Shown: positions 1 to 6,934 of the stretch, piece by piece
Layout: every line of letters begins with the position of its first letter
Position numbering within the stretch: the first letter of the stretch is position 1
NCBI GenBank assembly: GCA_021846145.1
Contig: JAJZCJ010000174.1
Span: 1-6,934 of the forward strand
DNA length: 6,934 nt
Source: Bacillota bacterium
GTDB taxonomy: Bacteria; Bacillota; Bacilli; Alicyclobacillales; SLC66
Reading direction: 5' to 3'
Notes under the pieces: model-generated
The model's database searches: none
Told to the model about the DNA's origin: nothing
The model's input: only the letters and a program-made list of their open reading frames with translations
Position numbers and translations under genes: made by a program

Positions 1-120
1 CTGAGGGCGAGCTAAAGCCGATTGAAGCCCACCAATATCGCGGACACCGTGTAGGCCGCCGAAGCGATCAATGACCTGAAAATGAATGTATAGAACCTCT
101 CCAACGGTCAATAACCTCAT
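1..120 (-). CDS. doc: Doc (death-on-curing) family toxin, N-terminal 40 codons only
   Basis: The reading frame starts at ATG 120 and is open to the window edge, so only the first 40 residues are visible. The product begins MRLLTVGEVLYIHFQVIDRF and continues with a GVRDIGGLQSALARPQ segment, the typical N-terminus of Doc proteins of the Fic fold. In the family, Doc phosphorylates translation factor EF-Tu and stops translation. The catalytic HxFxxGNKR motif would lie beyond the edge, so activity cannot be judged. The start codon overlaps the antitoxin stop by four bases (ATGA), which implies translational coupling and supports a true toxin-antitoxin operon. The family call is fairly sure; whether the gene is intact is unknown. 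Confidence 0.85.
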   Translation of the reverse strand, partial: MRLLTVGEVLYIHFQVIDRFGGLHGVRDIGGLQSALARPQ

Positions 121-356
121 CGGTGAGCCAAGCTTTTGAGGATATCGCCATATTCAGCCACGAATCGGTCTACAGAATCATAGAACTCGGGAGTGATGTC
201 AGAACTTGATTCCGGGATGGGGCGAACCACGATCTCACCCTTTTCATTTCGCGTGACTTGAACGGGTTGATCTTCAAGGTGCATTTCGCGAACCCAATCC
301 GCAGGAATGGACACAGCGAAACTGTTTCCAGCCTTAAATACCTTTCGGACTTCCAT
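117..356 (-). CDS. AbrB/MazE-type antitoxin of a Doc module
   Basis: A 79-residue protein. Residues 1-48 (MEVRKVFKAGNSFAVSIPADW and onward) form a SpoVT/AbrB swapped-hairpin DNA-binding domain with the signature K-x-G-N-S-x-x-V-x-I-P. The acidic C-terminal tail (about 50-79, with PEFYDSVDRFVAEYGDIL) is the usual toxin-binding part. I chose ATG 356 rather than the longer frame beginning at 416 because an AAGGAGG site lies 10 nt upstream of it and the AbrB fold starts there. The role inferred from the family is to neutralise Doc and repress the shared promoter. The gene is first in the operon and overlaps doc by four bases. It looks intact. Confidence 0.88.
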   Translation of the reverse strand: MEVRKVFKAGNSFAVSIPADWVREMHLEDQPVQVTRNEKGEIVVRPIPESSSDITPEFYDSVDRFVAEYGDILKSLAHR

Positions 357-381
357 TGTTATGGATCCTCCTTCACGCAAT

Positions 382-797: not shown

Positions 798-1322
798 TTA
801 CTTAAACACAAAGTTGAGACCAAAACCTCCCCCAATGCCTGTTTGAACCGTGGTAGGTGGATTTGAACTAAATGTGACTGTAAGTATAAGATTTTGGCCA
901 CTTTTCGTAAAATGGTACGACTTCCCATTTGTTGCAGTGGTCGTATACGTTTTAAATAGTGAGAAATTATGGGCCAAATTTGCATTGATCAGAGTCACGG
1001 TAAAGACTCCATTTGTGATTTTGGGATTCTGATATGCTGTTTGCATCGTCCCGTGAGTCATATAGAGGGTTAAACTGTTTTCAGTTGCCTGAATTGATTC
1101 CACTGTAATATGTGGCGAACTAACCTGGGACTTCTGTTTCGGTTGGCTTATGCTGGTGCTATATACTGGGGTTTTAGTTCCACCTTTAGGCGTTTTATTT
1201 GTCTTAGGTGTTGAATTCGTATGGGATGGAGGATTGCCACTCGATACATTGTTACTGCAACCAGCTAAACCTAAAATCGAAGTAAGTAAAGTTACGCTTA
1301 AGAGTATTGCTTTATTCTTCAT
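798..1322 (-). CDS. Small secreted lipoprotein of unknown function
   Basis: A 174-residue protein with a lipoprotein signal peptide: basic MKNK, a hydrophobic stretch at 5-18, and lipobox L-A-G-C with the lipidated Cys at 22. A low-complexity linker rich in Ser, Thr, Pro, Asn and Lys follows (about 23-70), as is common in proteins that span the Gram-positive wall. The remaining 100 residues (HITVESIQATENSLTLYM to GGGFGLNFVFK) alternate hydrophobic and polar residues and look like an all-beta domain. The layout faintly recalls AMIN domains, but I would not assign it. An AAGGTGG site lies 13 nt upstream of ATG 1322, which is rather far. No in-frame alternative start is nearer. The gene is monocistronic and appears intact. 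Confidence 0.8.
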   Translation of the reverse strand: MKNKAILLSVTLLTSILGLAGCSNNVSSGNPPSHTNSTPKTNKTPKGGTKTPVYSTSISQPKQKSQVSSPHITVESIQATENSLTLYMTHGTMQTAYQNPKITNGVFTVTLINANLAHNFSLFKTYTTTATNGKSYHFTKSGQNLILTVTFSSNPPTTVQTGIGGGFGLNFVFK

Positions 1323-1682: not shown

Positions 1683-2840
1683 TCAGTTTTTCATCGAAGA
1701 AGCGATCACCAAAGCGTTGTAGATGCCTTGGGAAGAAACACTATATAAATCGGAACCCTCAACAAAACTGACAGATACCTGCCTACCCATAACACCTCCA
1801 TACGATCCCCCAATATCTTGAATCCATACGAGTCCGTTTGTGGGAGGCAAATATACTGAATTCAAAATGTTGACAACATTTTTGGCCTGCTCCGGATCCA
1901 GCATTGTATCCGGTCCGCAAACACCCAAAGTCCAATCCCCTTCATGCCAGAGAATCGTTTCATTTTGTGTCCCTTGATACGTAATTCCAGTCAAACCACT
2001 ACCAAGATTGACGGTGCTTGCAGGTAATTTTCCGCCTAAAACCTGCTGTACTCCGTACATCATCTGCTTTTGGGCGGCTTCGTTGGTTGAAAATTGGACT
2101 CCGCTAATCTGAGCAAGAAGGGGCACTGGATTCAAGTTCAATTTTGCCTGATTGATTCCGTAAGGGATTTTTGTCAAATAAATCGATTCATTATACGTAA
2201 AGGATTTTGCAGCGACGTATAATGAATAATATGGTTTTGAAATCATTCCAAAAGAAATGGTTTGCGGCAACCAAGTAGGTTCCAAAATGGGCAGTGTTGC
2301 CCCCATTTGCTTCGCCTGATTACGTGCTGCGGTTAGAGGTGTTGGCCAGTTTCCAGACTGCGGTAATACGCTGATTGTCCTCTGTACGCTTACAGTGCCG
2401 CCACTAGGATAGGAAGCGTAAAAAGTATATGTTTCCGGACCACCTCCGTTAAGAAGGAAATTTGTTTGAAATGAACCATCCGTACCAATCGCAACTGAAA
2501 TTTTTGAAACGGTGTAGCCGCTGGAAAGATCCATCCACAATGTTACCTTATTCGCTCCGACAGGATGTTGGACTCGTCCTGTGACGTGTACCGTGTTGAG
2601 AGCCCAAATTGTCGGCGCATCAAGAATGACTTGTGGAGTTGGGATGCTTTTTGATTTTTCTGAATCGGTGGTTGTCGTTCGACTCACATGAACTTGATTT
2701 GAGGATTCGCGATGAACGGGTAGAGAAGTGGGATTTTGTGATGCTTGAACCACGTCTGTAGAACCGCATCCTACAACGAGAGTAAGCATCATGGCAGAAC
2801 AACCAGCGACAACTAAAATTTTATAATGCTCTCTTTTCAA
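1683..2840 (-). CDS. Secreted lipoprotein with Ig-like region and WLP-type C-terminal domain
   Basis: A 385-residue protein. The start is TTG 2840, not the TTG at 2867, because GGAGGAG (2847-2853) ends 6 nt before it; the longer form would contain that site within its coding sequence. The signal peptide has KREHYK, a hydrophobic core at about 8-23, and lipobox V-V-G-C with the lipidated Cys at 25. A Ser/Thr-rich linker reaches about residue 70. Residues 73-158 look like an immunoglobulin-like beta domain with a TDGSFQ turn. After PILEPTWLP (about 184-192) comes an alpha/beta region with WHEGDWTLGVCG near 298-309 followed by a helix. This resembles extracytoplasmic DUF4367-type domains found near sigma/anti-sigma systems, which is an uncertain comparison. 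The substrate or partner is unknown. The gene is intact and stands alone. Confidence 0.82.
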   Translation of the reverse strand: MKREHYKILVVAGCSAMMLTLVVGCGSTDVVQASQNPTSLPVHRESSNQVHVSRTTTTDSEKSKSIPTPQVILDAPTIWALNTVHVTGRVQHPVGANKVTLWMDLSSGYTVSKISVAIGTDGSFQTNFLLNGGGPETYTFYASYPSGGTVSVQRTISVLPQSGNWPTPLTAARNQAKQMGATLPILEPTWLPQTISFGMISKPYYSLYVAAKSFTYNESIYLTKIPYGINQAKLNLNPVPLLAQISGVQFSTNEAAQKQMMYGVQQVLGGKLPASTVNLGSGLTGITYQGTQNETILWHEGDWTLGVCGPDTMLDPEQAKNVVNILNSVYLPPTNGLVWIQDIGGSYGGVMGRQVSVSFVEGSDLYSVSSQGIYNALVIASSMKN

Positions 2841-2846
2841 GTTTAA

Positions 2847-2853
2847 CTCCTCC
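2847..2853 (-). promoter_or_regulatory. Shine-Dalgarno site that fixes the TTG start of the large lipoprotein
   Basis: GGAGGAG is followed by six bases (TTAAAC) and then TTG 2840. Initiation at the upstream TTG (2867) would have no comparable site. Confidence 0.75.
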
Positions 2854-2894
2854 GTTTTTACATCCAATGAGTCGAAACAAGAGAATATGAGATT

Positions 2895-3065: not shown

Positions 3066-3115
3066 TGGTGCGGCAGATAGGAATTGAACCTATGACCCCC
3101 ACCGTGTCAAGGTGG
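3066..3115 (-). pseudogene. 3' part of tRNA-Val(GAC): attachment-site scar
   Basis: The minus strand reads, in order, anticodon stem CCACC (3115-3111), loop TTGACAC with anticodon GAC (3110-3104), stem GGTGG, 5-nt variable loop GGGTC, T-stem ATAGG, loop TTCAATT, T-stem CCTAT, acceptor 3' strand CTGCCGC, discriminator A and encoded CCA (3068-3066). All visible stems pair perfectly. The 26 bases upstream (3141-3116), where GCGGCAG and a D-arm should be, do not match. A clean 3' portion beside foreign sequence is what tyrosine-recombinase integration at a tRNA leaves on the side away from the rebuilt gene. The intact tRNA-Val copy is expected beyond the right edge. Confidence 0.85.
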
Positions 3116-3117
3116 AA

Positions 3118-3160
3118 AACGGGCAATCTCACTTTGTCCACGTTCCTCATTTAGCCCGTT
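3118..3160. repeat. Inverted repeat beside the attachment site
   Basis: AACGGGC (3118-3124) and GCCCGTT (3154-3160) are perfect 7-bp arms 29 nt apart, starting only three bases from the tRNA anticodon stem. The position suits recombinase or accessory-factor binding in an attachment site. The role is inferred. Confidence 0.45.
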
Positions 3161-3224
3161 AAATCAAGGTTTTTTGCCTTTTATCCTGTAACGTTTAGTC
3201 TGCATTATTCCCACTTATTCAACG

Positions 3225-3246
3225 TTTCGTGCCCATTTCGTGCCCA
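3225..3246. repeat. Tandem 11-bp repeat near att, possible integrase tail remnant
   Basis: TTTCGTGCCCA occurs twice in direct tandem (3225-3235, 3236-3246). Read on the minus strand from 3253 it encodes TFGHEMGTKR and then TGA. This resembles the C-terminal tails of some Bacillota phage integrases, whose genes commonly end right beside the tRNA att site. A TAA lies immediately upstream in that frame, so if it is an integrase trace only the last codons remain. It may instead be a pair of arm-type binding sites. Confidence 0.4.
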
Positions 3247-3272: not shown

Positions 3273-3890
3273 TTATTCATGATTCAAAACCTTACGAACT
3301 GAATCAACCATCTTCCCATCCGCACCCTTTACCACTAAATACCCATTTTTACCGATGTGATAAAGGTGTATATCATTATTTTGAATATTCCCTAAAGATC
3401 TATTTTTAGATGCTAAAAAGGCTACCCCGATCTCTGCATTTTCGAATTTGCCTCCATGAGCTATCGCAGGCGCATACCATCTTGGTGCACGTTGTTTTGT
3501 TTTAGGAATCCGATGCCCCATTTTGCAGCTAGCTTGATCCTTCCTTTTCCTGCCATCTTTGGATTTTTCCTGAACCTGTATATGGTATGCCGCGATCAAA
3601 GTTTTGTCTGAACCATCGTTTTGATTTGAACATGAGTTAGATGGTTTTCCCTTTCGTAACTTAATAATACGTTTTTCCCATTGTTCAGGAGTCCATCTGG
3701 CATCCATGAACTTTTTAACGGTAATCGCTATGTCTCGCGACGAATCGTACATTCCAATCATTTGTATCGCTTTTTTATACGGCAGTACTTTCCTTTTGGC
3801 TTCTTCTTGTGAACATTTTTGGAGGTTGGCGAATTCATCAATAATTGCATCAAAATAAAGATCAAATATGTTTTCGCTATTCGTTTTCAT
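3273..3890 (-). CDS. Unrecognised protein, partner of the DUF3990 gene
   Basis: A 205-residue protein starting MKTNSENIF at ATG 3890. AAGGAGG (3900-3906) lies 9 nt upstream, so the longer frame from 3917 is unlikely. It overlaps the DUF3990 gene by 14 nt, which indicates co-translation. Residues 5-70 (IFDLYFDAIIDEFANL, then KAIQMIGMYDSSRDIAITVK) look helical and faintly recall DUF3791, a small family often beside DUF3990; this is weak pattern evidence. The middle (about 80-125) is basic, with Lys/Arg clusters and Cys residues. The C-terminus (RWYAPAIAHGGKF to VLNHE) looks alpha/beta and I do not recognise it. A function as antitoxin, immunity protein or substrate adaptor is possible from position only. 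It is the last gene before the att scar. Confidence 0.78.
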   Translation of the reverse strand: MKTNSENIFDLYFDAIIDEFANLQKCSQEEAKRKVLPYKKAIQMIGMYDSSRDIAITVKKFMDARWTPEQWEKRIIKLRKGKPSNSCSNQNDGSDKTLIAAYHIQVQEKSKDGRKRKDQASCKMGHRIPKTKQRAPRWYAPAIAHGGKFENAEIGVAFLASKNRSLGNIQNNDIHLYHIGKNGYLVVKGADGKMVDSVRKVLNHE

Positions 3891-4506
3891 GATGCCATTC
3901 CTCCTTATTTTCATCATACACCCAGTACGAGTGAAGGTGCAAAAATTTTTGCGCTAATGTTTCGTCGCAGTAGACAATCTGATTACCTAGACCCAAACCC
4001 TGACGAGCGTCGCCGTTCGCAGACATCCTAATGTTCTGGTAGAACCAATCTCGATCATGGAAATTAGCTTTATACTTGTCAATAAGTCCCCCAGTATTAT
4101 TGTCAGCCATAGGGCCAATTACAACATCAAAATGTTCCCAACCTTCATTATTGCACGGATCGGTCTTTTCATCCGGTTCTGAAAGCCGATGAATCAAAAT
4201 ATAGTCTGACCACTGTCTACTTTCGCCCAGAAAAATATGTTGTCTAACCCTGGTCAAATCATACGACAGATCACATCTAATTTGTAATACACATGCCTGT
4301 TCATTTGGATCTTGTTCGGCTCTTTTAAGAGCCCATTCTTGGGCTTGGGCAAGATCAATCGTTGTATAGAATCCTCTTCCGAAATCTTTGTTCATTTTCC
4401 AATAATTAATATCAATTAGGTTAATCCCGAAACCCGATAAACTGCGTGATGGAGTTCCATGATATACATATTCAGGATGATTGATTTTTATAAATTGGCT
4501 TTCCAC
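3877..4506 (-). CDS. DUF3990 protein, ADP-ribosyltransferase-like
   Basis: A 209-residue protein. GTG 4506 is chosen because GGAGG (4514-4518) lies 7 nt upstream; the ATG at 4536 has no such site. Family signatures in order are YHGTP (15-19), DFGRGFYTT (41-49) then an AQ-x-WA helix, QWSDYILIHR (98-107), FDVVIGPMADN (126-136) and NQIVYCDE (175-182). I recall DUF3990 as related to the ADP-ribosyltransferase fold. The His in YHGT, the Tyr in GFYTT and the final Q/E cluster fit an H-Y-E style NAD site, but catalysis is inferred. Everything the family needs seems present, so the gene looks intact, unlike the replication gene of the same element. It is first in a two-gene operon and a plausible toxin or effector. 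Confidence 0.85.
   Translation of the reverse strand: MESQFIKINHPEYVYHGTPSRSLSGFGINLIDINYWKMNKDFGRGFYTTIDLAQAQEWALKRAEQDPNEQACVLQIRCDLSYDLTRVRQHIFLGESRQWSDYILIHRLSEPDEKTDPCNNEGWEHFDVVIGPMADNNTGGLIDKYKANFHDRDWFYQNIRMSANGDARQGLGLGNQIVYCDETLAQKFLHLHSYWVYDENKEEWHHENE
3900..3906 (-). promoter_or_regulatory. Shine-Dalgarno site inside the end of the DUF3990 gene
   Basis: AAGGAGG with 9-nt spacing to ATG 3890 lies within the last codons of the upstream gene. It decides the start of the downstream protein and shows that the two are read as a coupled pair. Confidence 0.75.
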
Positions 4507-4561: not shown

Positions 4562-4819
4562 TTAAGATTGATTAAGATCACATACCCTATAATACACATT
4601 ATAGAGAACATAGAAAAAAAAGCGAAGCGCCCGCGAGCTCCGCCCCTTACTGTTGTTGACTAGCGAGCCGCGCTTCCCTTTCTTCTCTTCCTCCATGCCA
4701 CGTAGCAACAACCTTCGTAATTCCGAGCTTGTCCTCCGCTGTGGCACACGTGCTAAAAACTCACTAATTTTCGGATCGCACTCGTCATCGTAATACAACA
4801 CCACACGTTTACTGTTCAT
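4562..4819 (-). CDS. Small ParR/ribbon-helix-helix-like protein with probable aberrant C-terminal tail
   Basis: An 85-residue frame. ATG 4819 is chosen over the GTG at 4828 because AAGGGAG (4828-4834) lies 8 nt upstream. Residues 1-45 run from strand MNSKRVVLYYDDE through a helix (DPKISEFLARV) to TSSELRRLLLRGM, a beta-helix-helix layout seen in plasmid partition ParR-type and CopG-like DNA-binding proteins. The family call is tentative. The rest is suspicious: from about residue 52 the codons coincide with a terminator stem, its T-tract (giving FFF) and the next promoter. The functional protein therefore probably ends earlier, or an indel removed the original stop; a TAG lies in another frame at 4662-4660. 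It follows the replication gene, as partition or copy-control genes often do. Confidence 0.6.
   Translation of the reverse strand: MNSKRVVLYYDDECDPKISEFLARVPQRRTSSELRRLLLRGMEEEKKGKRGSLVNNSKGRSSRALRFFFYVLYNVYYRVCDLNQS
4587..4604 (-). promoter_or_regulatory. Promoter -10 inside a perfect palindrome upstream of the DUF3990 operon
   Basis: CTATAAT-N4-ATTATAG has perfect 7-bp arms. On the minus strand its first arm contains TATAAT (4603-4598), a consensus -10. The hexamer 17 bp upstream (TTCGCT) is a poor -35. The predicted start leaves a leader of about 80-85 nt before GTG 4506. A dyad covering the -10 is a classic repressor layout, suggesting autoregulation by an operon product or by the RHH protein encoded next door. 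Confidence 0.5.
4614..4676 (-). terminator. Terminator-like hairpin with 8-base T-tract inside the RHH reading frame
   Basis: On the minus strand GAAGCGC (4676-4670) and GCGCTTC (4630-4624) are perfect 7-bp arms. They are followed two bases later by eight T residues (4621-4614). The 39-nt loop is long, but it can form an inner GCTC/GAGC stem. The structure separates the replication/partition genes from the DUF3990 promoter. Confidence 0.55.
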
Positions 4820-4899: not shown

Positions 4900-4997
4900 G
4901 TGCATCAGTGTGCATATTGCACCACTCTATGTATGTACATGCGGAACCAGATGCACGTCAATCATCCTCAAGCGGAATGAATCCCACTGACGTGCAT
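4900..4997. repeat. Cluster of GTGCAT/ATGCAC motifs, possible iterons or centromere-like site
   Basis: GTGCAT occurs at 4900-4905, 4910-4915 and 4992-4997, and its complement ATGCAC at 4951-4956. GTGCA-TAT-TGCAC (4910-4922) is itself a dyad. The cluster lies between the replication gene and the RHH gene, where replication iterons or a ParR-type site would be expected. Part of it overlaps the last codons of the replication gene. Confidence 0.4.
4951..4997. repeat. Perfect 10-bp inverted repeat spanning the stop codon of the replication gene
   Basis: ATGCACGTCA (4951-4960) and TGACGTGCAT (4988-4997) are perfect complements 27 nt apart. The TGA stop (4960-4958) lies in one arm. It can form a hairpin at the transcript end, but there is no T-tract, so it is either a protein-binding dyad or an unusual 3' structure. 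Confidence 0.55.
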
Positions 4998-5404
4998 GTG
5001 AATCCTCTTTCCTCGTTTGGTTTCCGCTTCACGTACATGTCAAGCAGAAACAATCGTTCGGCAGTGATAAAATGTTGAGCCATCAACCGCGCCAGCGTGG
5101 GATCCACACCGCTGGCATCTGCTTCATCCGCCATGCTTTGCAAAGAGCGAACCCAATACTCAATCCGATCGGATAACTGATTGGATTTTTCGTCAGTGAG
5201 CAATCTTTGTTGGATGTGTGCTACCCAGCCCCTCCCAAAGCTGCCTCGGTTGTCTTCCATAATTTTTATTAGTGGGATGAGGAATTCTGATATATCCTTT
5301 TTGCTAAGCTGGTCAAATACCGGATCGGTCACGACAAGACTTCTGCGGAGGAATCCCTGGAATTGCGCTTTCTCTCTGATGTCTGCTTCTGCTGATGCGA
5401 TCAT
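4958..5404 (-). CDS. Replication gene, C-terminal segment
   Basis: The frame can be read from about 5434 (TRETAEFQTIMIASAEADI); the ATG at 5404 is internal and has no Shine-Dalgarno site. AEFQTIMIASAEADIREKAQFQGFLRRSLVV fits the DUF927 end, where an 'LStGE' strand is followed by a G-x-x-x-R segment. The rest (about 110 residues) is mainly helical, with DPVFDQLSKKDISEFL and IEYWVRSLQSMADEADASG. It looks like the winged or helical C-terminal region of such helicases, ending GFIPLEDD. The stop codon lies in an arm of the 10-bp inverted repeat. Confidence 0.65.
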   Translation of the reverse strand: MIASAEADIREKAQFQGFLRRSLVVTDPVFDQLSKKDISEFLIPLIKIMEDNRGSFGRGWVAHIQQRLLTDEKSNQLSDRIEYWVRSLQSMADEADASGVDPTLARLMAQHFITAERLFLLDMYVKRKPNEERGFTCTSVGFIPLEDD

Positions 5405-5958
5405 GATCGTTTGGAATTCGGCTGTTTCCCGAGTCCTCCCTCTTTGGCACCGCGTTCTCGTCCCTGTTGGTTAAAAATTTTGTACACCAGTTGGTTGACT
5501 TGGTGGTCAGTGGCATTCTGCAGATCCTCGTAAAAGGCAGGCATGTGCGTGCGCAGGGCTAGCGCTTGTTCCATTCCGACTGATGTCGCGTCCCAACTGC
5601 GTACCAATGCTTCATGTTTTCCGTATGCGAATGCACCGATCTTCTGTATCATCGATTTGCCACTACCACGATCACCACATACGGCAACGGTGTGGCTTTG
5701 CCCTGATGAACCTAGTGCAGGTAATAATGGCGGAGTGAGCGCGGCAACGAGCAAAAACATAGCAGTAGGGAATTCGTCTAACAAATGAAAGATCATCAAC
5801 CAATCCTTGATCGCTGGACATGTTAAATGATGAATTTCCCAGTGCTTTGTGCAGTGACCTACCATCACTGGAATCAGCCCGTGCGACTTGTACATGCTCC
5901 CAATCCCCCAATGCCGTTTGAAAAGCAAGCGTTCTGGTTGCGACTTCGCCGCGATCAT
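5401..5958 (-). CDS. Replication gene, middle segment with Walker A ATPase motif
   Basis: The meaningful part is about 5778-5437; the residues before DEFPTAMF are off-frame. It contains a hydrophobic helix (LLVAALTPPLLPAL), then strand VAVCGDRGSGKS with Walker A GDRGSGKS (5676-5653), the SWDAT element (5598-5584), and MPAFYEDLQNA. In DUF927 relatives the corresponding position usually reads like a Walker B lDE; here the acidic pair is ED. QLVYKIFNQQGRERG then matches the family's 'nG.gkgR' segment. After about 5437 the frame runs into unrelated residues and stops at 5401. A pipeline might call this a separate ATPase gene, but it lacks its own Shine-Dalgarno site and reads as an internal fragment. 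Confidence 0.6.
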   Translation of the reverse strand: MIAAKSQPERLLFKRHWGIGSMYKSHGLIPVMVGHCTKHWEIHHLTCPAIKDWLMIFHLLDEFPTAMFLLVAALTPPLLPALGSSGQSHTVAVCGDRGSGKSMIQKIGAFAYGKHEALVRSWDATSVGMEQALALRTHMPAFYEDLQNATDHQVNQLVYKIFNQQGRERGAKEGGLGKQPNSKRS

Positions 5959-6934
5959 AATCGTGTCCCGTCTCTATAATGATGAGCATTTGCTCCGCCA
6001 CTAATTCGTTTTCCAATTCTCCGTTTTTGCCGTTCCGCTGCCCGTAAAGCTTTCCTTGTTTAACCATATAACCTGGAGGCAAAACCAACTCTTCGCGCCC
6101 AGGAGCGTTTCCAAAATAATCTTTGATTTTAGGTAAGTAAGCAGTAGTAGCATTCCGCTTTGGATGCACCAATTTCATTCGTTTCACAAATTCGTTGCGT
6201 TCTTGTTGCTTGGTCCAGCCACGACTGTCTGCAACTTGATTCAAAATATCCATTTTGTCGTTTTCATCAAGTCGTTGCCAACCCAGTGCAAACCGTCTGA
6301 ATTGGCTACTTGTATCGTTCTGTGTTGCAATTTCGTGGGTATATTGTTGCATGTCAGTGAGGCTCATCGGTGTGTCGGCGTAAACCGATGGATAATTGGC
6401 TACTACTTTGGCCATGCAGGTATCAAGTAACGAGCATACAAATCCATCTTCGCCTAGCTTTTTGCACCCTACCGGATAGTTGCCTTCTTGTAATGCGGCT
6501 GATGTGTGGTCAAATTTATAATCCGCTTCCTTCTCCGTGTATTTTTGATGACCCTCCGATAGTGCATGAAACAGAGTACGGCCATTTTCCGCAAATGGCG
6601 CGAGATTTGCAGCTAATGCATACCACAGATGCTCATGTAGGTCGGTGCGATGTTCATCGACAAACTTGATAAATTCGCATTGCTGAATGTCCACCAATTC
6701 TCCCAATTGCGACATGTCATAATTTCTGACCACTTGGCCAGTTCTACGCATCTCAATTAATTTAGCAGTTTTCCCTAACTTATTTGCATCGATATACGCG
6801 TCAATTTGGGATTCAGTTACGCGCTGCACTTTCAGAAGCTCGGCAAGCTGATCATCGTAGGGTGCCAACGTCATCGGGTGAATGAATAAGCTGTTGTTTT
6901 TACGCACTGCTTCGCCCCAGAAAGGCACCGCCAG
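5672..6934 (-). CDS. Replication gene, N-terminal segment (zinc-like motif and DUF927 start)
   Basis: The frame is open to the window edge, and the GTG at 6928 is internal rather than a start. The stretch WYALAANLAPF, HALSEGHQKYTEKEADYKFD, then C-x9-C-x5-C (6466-6414) follows the pattern seen downstream of the catalytic core in element-encoded primases and may bind zinc. A region rich in charged residues follows. From about 6073 (PPGYMVKQGKLYG) to 5783 (SDQGLVDDLSF) the protein matches the layout of the DUF927 N-terminus, including TLAFQTALGDWEHVQVARAD. Beyond about 5783 the frame yields Cys/Arg-rich sequence with no family resemblance until its stop at 5674-5672, so it is off-frame there. 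The primase catalytic domain would be outside the window. Confidence 0.7.
   Translation of the reverse strand: MAVPFWGEAVRKNNSLFIHPMTLAPYDDQLAELLKVQRVTESQIDAYIDANKLGKTAKLIEMRRTGQVVRNYDMSQLGELVDIQQCEFIKFVDEHRTDLHEHLWYALAANLAPFAENGRTLFHALSEGHQKYTEKEADYKFDHTSAALQEGNYPVGCKKLGEDGFVCSLLDTCMAKVVANYPSVYADTPMSLTDMQQYTHEIATQNDTSSQFRRFALGWQRLDENDKMDILNQVADSRGWTKQQERNEFVKRMKLVHPKRNATTAYLPKIKDYFGNAPGREELVLPPGYMVKQGKLYGQRNGKNGELENELVAEQMLIIIETGHDYDRGEVATRTLAFQTALGDWEHVQVARADSSDGRSLHKALGNSSFNMSSDQGLVDDLSFVRRIPYCYVFARCRAHSAIITCTRFIRAKPHRCRMW

What the first reader, a model, noticed from the sequence alone, without database searches (positions are those of the whole stretch)
3273..4506. DUF3990 (ART-like) gene coupled to an unrecognised 205-residue partner
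The DUF3990 gene has every family motif I can recall and its own operator-like promoter. It overlaps the next gene by 14 nt, with a Shine-Dalgarno site inside it. The element's replication gene is broken, yet this pair is intact next to the att scar, as expected for selected cargo. In other Bacillota, DUF3990 is often paired with small DUF3791 proteins; here the partner is much longer, with a basic middle and an unfamiliar C-terminal domain. The pair could be a new toxin-antitoxin or defence type.
Basis: partly seen in the sequence, partly recalled or inferred. Interest (0 to 1): 0.7.

Follow-up and report, generated by a model that had tools for sequence, protein, structure and literature searches.

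The report
Toxin-like gene with unrecorded helical partner
Two overlapping bacterial genes look like a toxin built on the ADP-ribosyltransferase (NAD-using) fold and its small helical antidote; the antidote belongs to a recurring family without a name in the libraries searched, which makes the function of a widespread unknown toxin family testable.

Summary
In detail: a DUF3990 gene (3877-4506, minus; 72 bits, cutoff 32.2) overlaps a 205-codon gene (3273-3890) by 14 nt, with a ribosome site inside. The partner matches nothing in Pfam, NCBIfam or PADLOC, but is no orphan. All 20 nearest DUF3990 loci kept from a genome scan carry an overlapping downstream gene whose first ~85 residues are homologous to the window partner (profile built without it: E 3.5e-8; best of 5,000 shuffles 0.15). 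A family search finds 138 proteins. The window's basic linker and C-terminal part are an added tail. AlphaFold predicts an ART-like fold for DUF3990 and a four-helix domain for the partner. The likely active site is H-Y-Q, without conserved Glu, the Gln recalling TNT-type NADases. A relative with a partner-like domain fused on (L118) and a solo partner beside a DUF3990 fossil (L129) fit toxin plus antitoxin. The kind is known (ART toxin pairs; untested PADLOC candidate PDC-M13); the partner family and two-gene form are a new variant. Toxicity, neutralisation and chemistry are untested.

The parts
3877..4506 (-). DUF3990 (PF13151) gene, 209 aa, ART-like fold, putative toxin; H16, Y47, Q176 as likely active-site residues
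3273..3890 (-). partner gene, 205 aa, putative antitoxin with C-terminal tail
   Evidence: ORF; no Pfam/NCBIfam/PADLOC match; single-sequence search finds only itself
3639..3890 (-). conserved partner domain (residues 1-84), four helices
   Evidence: profile without the window scores it at E 3.5e-8 against 0.15 for the best of 5,000 shuffles; block means of pLDDT 90-98 for residues 11-80
3276..3638 (-). tail of the partner (residues 85-205): basic, mostly low-confidence linker, then three strands (within 175-199) at pLDDT about 60
   Evidence: pLDDT <50 for 86-98 and 100-168; net charge +13, pI 10.0 for the last 127 residues; none of 20,000 mononucleotide shuffles stays open
3877..3890 (-). 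14-nt overlap of the two genes
   Evidence: overlaps of 11-56 nt in L001-L020 and L081 with the starts chosen
3900..3906 (-). Shine-Dalgarno AAGGAGG of the partner, inside the DUF3990 gene
   Evidence: sequence printed
4617..4648 (-). terminator-like stem-loop with T run, upstream of the pair
   Evidence: 12 pairs; the region has 4 terminator-like matches, 3 of them overlapping at this place, against 1.1 (sd 1.1) expected
3066..3133 (-). 3' part of a tRNA, likely attachment-site copy at the element edge
   Evidence: RF00005 22.1 bits at 3075-3133, below cutoff; ARAGORN finds no whole tRNA; extension to 3066 by eye
4958..6934 (-). broken primase/DUF927-helicase replication gene of the element (described only)
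   Evidence: PF06048 2.8e-22 in ORF 5401-5958, phrog_8841 split over two frames; that ORF 4958-5404 belongs to it is by eye

Best explanation
The two genes are a toxin-antitoxin pair. The DUF3990 protein is an NAD-consuming enzyme of the ADP-ribosyltransferase fold (either transferring ADP-ribose or splitting NAD) that harms the cell when free. The partner is made from the same mRNA through an overlapping start; its four-helix N-terminal domain binds DUF3990 and keeps it off. The variable, here basic, tail probably tunes release, stability or autoregulation. Shown: gene order, overlap, homology and recurrence of the partner domain, invariant H/Y/Q, purifying selection on both genes in relatives. 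Predicted: both folds. Inferred: toxicity, binding, neutralisation, trigger, and the role of the tail. In the window the pair sits at the edge of a decayed integrated element.
For: Recurrence: 20 of 20 nearest genome loci and viral contig L081 carry the overlapping partner; of 104 genomes of the family, 11 have the partner and 14 DUF3990, the 11 all being among the 14 and the places adjoining; the other three also have a small gene overlapping downstream. Fusion: L118 has DUF3990 and a partner-like domain in one 279-aa protein (tail 15.7 bits, 0 of 2,000 shuffles as good, best 9.2). Solo partner in L129 with the last 35 residues of a DUF3990 left upstream (tblastn 8.6e-6): toxin lost, antitoxin kept. 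Selection: Ka/Ks 0.040-0.074 for DUF3990 and 0.035-0.158 for the partner in the 7 of 10 pairs that could be computed (pairs share sequences). ART-like fold. DUF3990 is also the C-terminal domain of a Serratia Rhs effector that, like its kin, has a small gene directly downstream predicted to be its immunity gene (PMC4524185, passage read); L120 has a similar layout.
Against: No experiment. A partner without any DUF3990 found within 9.9 kb in L130 (330 aa) shows it can have another life. Ten of the 20 nearest loci keep two flanking marker genes, unusual for selfish modules. The other viral contig hit, L082, has no downstream partner. Structural similarity of the DUF3990 model is modest: one Foldseek match at E <= 0.001, TM-score 0.41, rmsd 10.2. 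No solved structure matches the partner significantly. The window's own pair has no close relative, so selection on it cannot be measured.
Confidence: 0.7

Rival explanations
1. The partner is not an antitoxin but a subunit or targeting/activating factor of the enzyme (a two-subunit enzyme); the tail binds nucleic acid or a target.
For: The fusion in L118 keeps both parts together for good, which fits a subunit as well as an inhibitor; basic tails in the window, L084, L107, L110, L085 and L109 (net +6 to +14); shared flanking genes in 10 of 20 loci.
Against: A solo partner beside a toxin fossil is easier to explain for an antitoxin; the tails of L081, L095, L019 and L086 are not basic, so a basic tail is no constant part.
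Confidence: 0.15
2. A phage-defence module in the strict sense, released by infection (overlaps with the best explanation).
For: PADLOC models named PDC-M13A/B/C match DUF3990, DUF3791 and a further small protein; a 2026 paper says PDCs come from a guilt-by-embedding search and that validation is pending for most of those in its core set (PMC12988326, passages read); 61 plasmid records hold a DUF3990 relative, 28 of them typed conjugative.
Against: No PADLOC model matches the window partner, and no DUF3791 was found in the window; a phage, Geobacillus virus E3, carries a DUF3990 gene with an overlapping small gene itself.
Confidence: 0.35
3. A chance or decaying reading frame: the partner is an overlapping ORF without function.
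For: Single-sequence search of 5.8 billion proteins finds only itself; the in-frame coding score of the tail (0.054) is no better than that of another frame (0.068).
Against: Homology of the N-terminal domain, purifying selection in relatives, 121 tail codons without a stop (0 of 20,000 shuffles).
Confidence: 0.04

Closest known systems
PADLOC candidate PDC-M13 (DUF3791 - DUF3990 - small protein), and PDC-M10
   Same: DUF3990 enzyme beside small proteins with overlapping or abutting starts; the window DUF3990 matches M13B 3.9e-17, M13A 3e-15, M10A 1.6e-10
   Different: Two genes, no DUF3791 found, partner not matched by any PADLOC model; profile link to the M13 downstream protein is weak (hhalign probability 32-38)
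Rhs effectors with a DUF3990 C-terminal domain (Serratia Rhs5; Enterobacter RhsA of E104107)
   Same: Same toxin domain; the Serratia one has a small gene directly downstream predicted to be the immunity gene (PMC4524185, passage; PMC10763514, passage, names the domain only)
   Different: Delivered between cells; the window protein is 209 aa and Pfam shows no other domain over its cutoff
CmdTAC (ART toxin, antitoxin, SecB-like chaperone)
   Same: ART toxin held inside the cell by an antitoxin (PMC11618068, abstract and passages read)
   Different: No SecB among the nine window proteins scanned with Pfam; relation of CmdT to DUF3990 not tested
DarTG
   Same: ART toxin with antitoxin (recalled)
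   Different: DarG has a macrodomain (recalled); the window partner has no Pfam match and a helical model
TNT-type NADases with immunity proteins
   Same: A strictly conserved active-site Gln (Gln822 of TNT; PMC10539506, passages read); DUF3990 has an invariant Q176 and no conserved Glu
   Different: TNT-type residues are Arg, Tyr/Phe and Gln, DUF3990 has His, Tyr, Gln; superposition of Q176 not measured

Membership tests
DUF3990 (PF13151) | score over Pfam's gathering cutoff | tested here: met
   72 bits against 32.2
ART superfamily | ART fold | tested here: met
ART superfamily | His and Tyr of the H-Y-E triad | tested here: met
   H16 in 107 of 108, Y47 in 109 of 109 aligned loci; placement by secondary structure, no superposition
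ART superfamily, H-Y-E transferases | catalytic Glu as third residue | tested here: not met
   no invariant or nearly invariant Glu in 45 sequences; Gln at 176 in 105 of 105 aligned, 6 loci with a gap there
TNT-type NADase | conserved Gln at the nicotinamide ribose | tested here: inconclusive
   Q176 invariant, at the start of strand 175-179; no superposition available
PADLOC PDC-M13 | DUF3791 gene present | tested here: not met
   DUF3791 profile against frames of 30 or more residues in all six frames of the window: best E 0.27
PADLOC PDC-M13 | small protein matching an M13 model | tested here: not met
   no PADLOC match for the partner up to E 1
Partner family of Paenibacillaceae (unnamed) | homologous N-terminal helical domain encoded just downstream of DUF3990 | tested here: met
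   E 3.5e-8 with a profile that excludes the window
Type II toxin-antitoxin | two adjacent genes likely translated together | tested here: met
   14-nt overlap and internal Shine-Dalgarno
Type II toxin-antitoxin | toxicity of one protein and neutralisation by binding of the other | not testable with these tools
   needs expression and binding assays

The most novel reading that the evidence does not exclude
DUF3990 is a large, uncharacterised class of ART-fold enzymes with an H-Y-Q site that destroy NAD rather than modify a target, and its small neighbours (the family found here, the PDC-M13 downstream protein, Rhs immunity proteins) are one antitoxin superfamily of a helical domain plus exchangeable tails that sense the trigger; the window's C-terminal part is one such sensor.
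Probability: 0.2. Interest if true: 0.7.

Novelty: new variant of a known kind. Interest (0 to 1): 0.5.

Why it matters
DUF3990 occurs in gut Bacteroidales, Bacillota, plasmids, phages and Rhs effectors, yet papers of 2023 and 2025 still treat it as a domain of unknown function (passages). A likely antidote family that recurs beside it gives a handle to express, crystallise and assay it. The H-Y-Q signature turns a vague label into a clear question: transferase or NADase.

Tried and rejected
DUF3791 as the same family as the window partner: not supported. The partner profile scores DUF3791 proteins above their shuffles, but a reversed (nonsense) profile scores them equally well (medians 2.8 and 2.8, p 0.99, 31 sequences); hhalign probability 20-25. 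For the M13 downstream protein the link is weak (p 0.002 against the reversed profile, 36 sequences; hhalign 32-38), for the mixed Bacilli group M moderate (hhalign 72, p 0.008, 9 sequences). Individual members L112, L125 and the tail of L124 score no better than their shuffles (304, 361 and 782 of 2,000 as good), so a fusion in L124 is not supported.

Host naming: not achieved; no whole genome is held for the window, and the larger replication piece finds nothing among plasmids.

Co-occurrence count: 90 of 111 DUF3990 loci have a downstream gene matching one of four partner-type profiles, but the profiles were built from many of the same loci, and L084 and L114 are one place counted twice. 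Of the 21 without, L102 and L139 end at a contig edge (L102's genome matches the partner at 6.6e-21), L118 and L124 carry C-terminal additions, and 17 have no match, some of them with an unmatched ORF there.

The partner count in the class sample is a lower bound: at most 14 candidates per genome were scored.

Full report
What is there. On the minus strand the window holds a DUF3990 gene (3877-4506, 209 aa, PF13151 5.4e-20) and a 205-codon gene (3273-3890) that begins inside it, 14 nt before its end, with AAGGAGG nine bases ahead of the ATG. To the right lies a broken primase/DUF927-helicase gene; to the left the 3' part of a tRNA (3075-3133 minus, 22.1 bits, below cutoff) and then two lipoprotein-like genes. 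A terminator-like hairpin at 4648-4617 separates the pair from the genes upstream. Neither a promoter match nor an inverted repeat was found at the claimed operator.

The partner is not an orphan. A search with the single sequence finds only itself among 5.8 billion proteins, and Pfam, NCBIfam and PADLOC show no match (one PHROG at E 0.024). But the surroundings of DUF3990 relatives show it. The 20 nearest (L001-L020: Paenibacillus, Cohnella, Bacillus) and viral contig L081 all have an overlapping downstream gene of 85-181 codons (overlap 11-56 nt with the starts I chose); the second viral contig, L082, a distant one, has none. A profile of the 19 short ones, without the window, scores the window partner at 32.3 bits, E 3.5e-8; the best of 5,000 shuffles of the same protein reaches E 0.15. 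Identity is only 15-23%, which explains why the single search missed it. With a family alignment (A3, window included) 138 proteins are found, of which 120 were listed; those with a source name are called hypothetical or uncharacterized, except one 'predicted transcriptional regulator'.

How tight is the pairing. In the 104 genomes searched for the family of L013's genome, 11 have the partner and 14 have DUF3990; the 11 are all within the 14 and the places adjoin. The other three (G371, G443, G418) also have a small overlapping gene downstream; two of them score as distant partners (1.1e-9, 0.0066), the third is of another type. In a sample of 348 genomes of the class, 4 have the partner (a lower bound) and 18 DUF3990; only 2 have both, so 16 of the 18 DUF3990 genomes have other neighbours, mostly other small genes, and two partner genomes (G236, G068) have no DUF3990 match. 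In G236 (L129) the last 35 residues of a DUF3990 remain just upstream of and overlapping the partner start (tblastn 8.6e-6); in G068 (L130) nothing was found within 9.9 kb.

Anatomy of the partner. AlphaFold gives four helices (5-24, 28-45, 51-63, 68-80) at high confidence, a low-confidence stretch to about 168 and three strands (within 175-199) at about 60. The conserved family covers the helices. The 19 short members end soon after them; ten longer ones that I compared have tails of 35 to 251 residues without detectable likeness, basic in the window, L084, L107, L110, L085 and L109, slightly or clearly acidic in L081, L095, L019 and L086. So the 'basic middle and unfamiliar C-terminal domain' looks like an exchangeable tail. 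That it is coding rests on 121 codons without a stop; codon usage is not decisive.

Evidence on function. Both genes are under purifying selection among Paenibacillus: Ka/Ks 0.040-0.074 and 0.035-0.158 in 7 pairs (three more pairs were saturated; pairs share sequences), with the partner's Ka higher in 9 of 10 pairs. One genome (L118) has DUF3990 and a partner-like domain fused. In L120 the DUF3990 domain ends a protein whose preceding part looks like an Rhs core (recalled motif; Pfam listed only DUF3990 and PARP), and the gene after it scores weakly as a partner (10.1 bits, 0 of 2,000 shuffles as good, best 9.9). A published Serratia Rhs effector with a DUF3990 end has a small gene directly downstream, predicted to be its immunity gene (PMC4524185, passage). 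These point to toxin and inhibitor. Against a purely selfish role, 10 of the 20 nearest loci hold the same two marker genes within about 5 kb on either side. Other homes are a 2.7-Mb plasmid of P. cellulosilyticus (L141), 61 plasmid records in all, 42 of Bacteroides, 28 typed conjugative, and Geobacillus virus E3, where an overlapping 71-codon gene follows.

What it is called. The 61 more distant DUF3990 loci (L021-L080, L082; mostly Bacteroidales and Clostridia) have DUF3791 upstream in 54 and another small protein downstream in 47. Examples from L022 match PADLOC models named PDC-M13, an untested candidate. The window pair is not that system: no DUF3791 found, no M13 match for the partner. 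Whether the small proteins are all one superfamily is undecided; a reversed-profile control removed the apparent link to DUF3791 and left weak to moderate links to the downstream ones.

Literature. Five papers in the library name DUF3990 or DUF3791; I read the passages in all five, not the whole papers; none of the passages gives a function. A further search for DUF3990 with toxin-antitoxin terms found only one of them, and of the ten papers listed only that one names DUF3990. Verdict: an ART-fold toxin-antitoxin-like pair, likely real, whose partner family is undescribed in the libraries searched.

Noticed in passing
window 1-359 (-): An AbrB/MazE-type antitoxin gene (117-359, PF04014 2.2e-10) is followed with a 4-nt overlap by the start of a Fic/Doc gene cut off by the window edge (PF02661 0.0021, below cutoff): probably a second, ordinary toxin-antitoxin pair.
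   Followed up: partly
window 4562-4819 (-): Small gene upstream of the pair with a weak PHROG match (phrog_38823, 0.0016); its last third runs through the terminator-like hairpin, so its end may be decayed.
   Followed up: no
window 3210-3245 (-): A short frame ending TFGHEMGTKR before a stop, near the tRNA fragment, reads like the tail of an integrase (likeness recalled, not tested).
   Followed up: no
L140 (Geobacillus virus E3) 1777-2587: A 141-kb phage carries its own DUF3990 gene (8.5e-30) with an overlapping 71-codon gene, two genes after an integrase-like gene.
   Followed up: partly
   Followed up: partly
L034, L041, L045, L054, L056, L063, L064, L068, L069: DUF3990 genes of 225-242 codons, each with a small ORF (76-88 codons) upstream (a piece of the L034 one matches DUF3791 at 4.4e-8) and no partner-type match downstream: a further layout.
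   Followed up: no
window 798-1322 and 1683-2867 (-): Two lipoprotein-like genes (by eye) without Pfam matches over the cutoff on the chromosomal side of the tRNA fragment.
   Followed up: no
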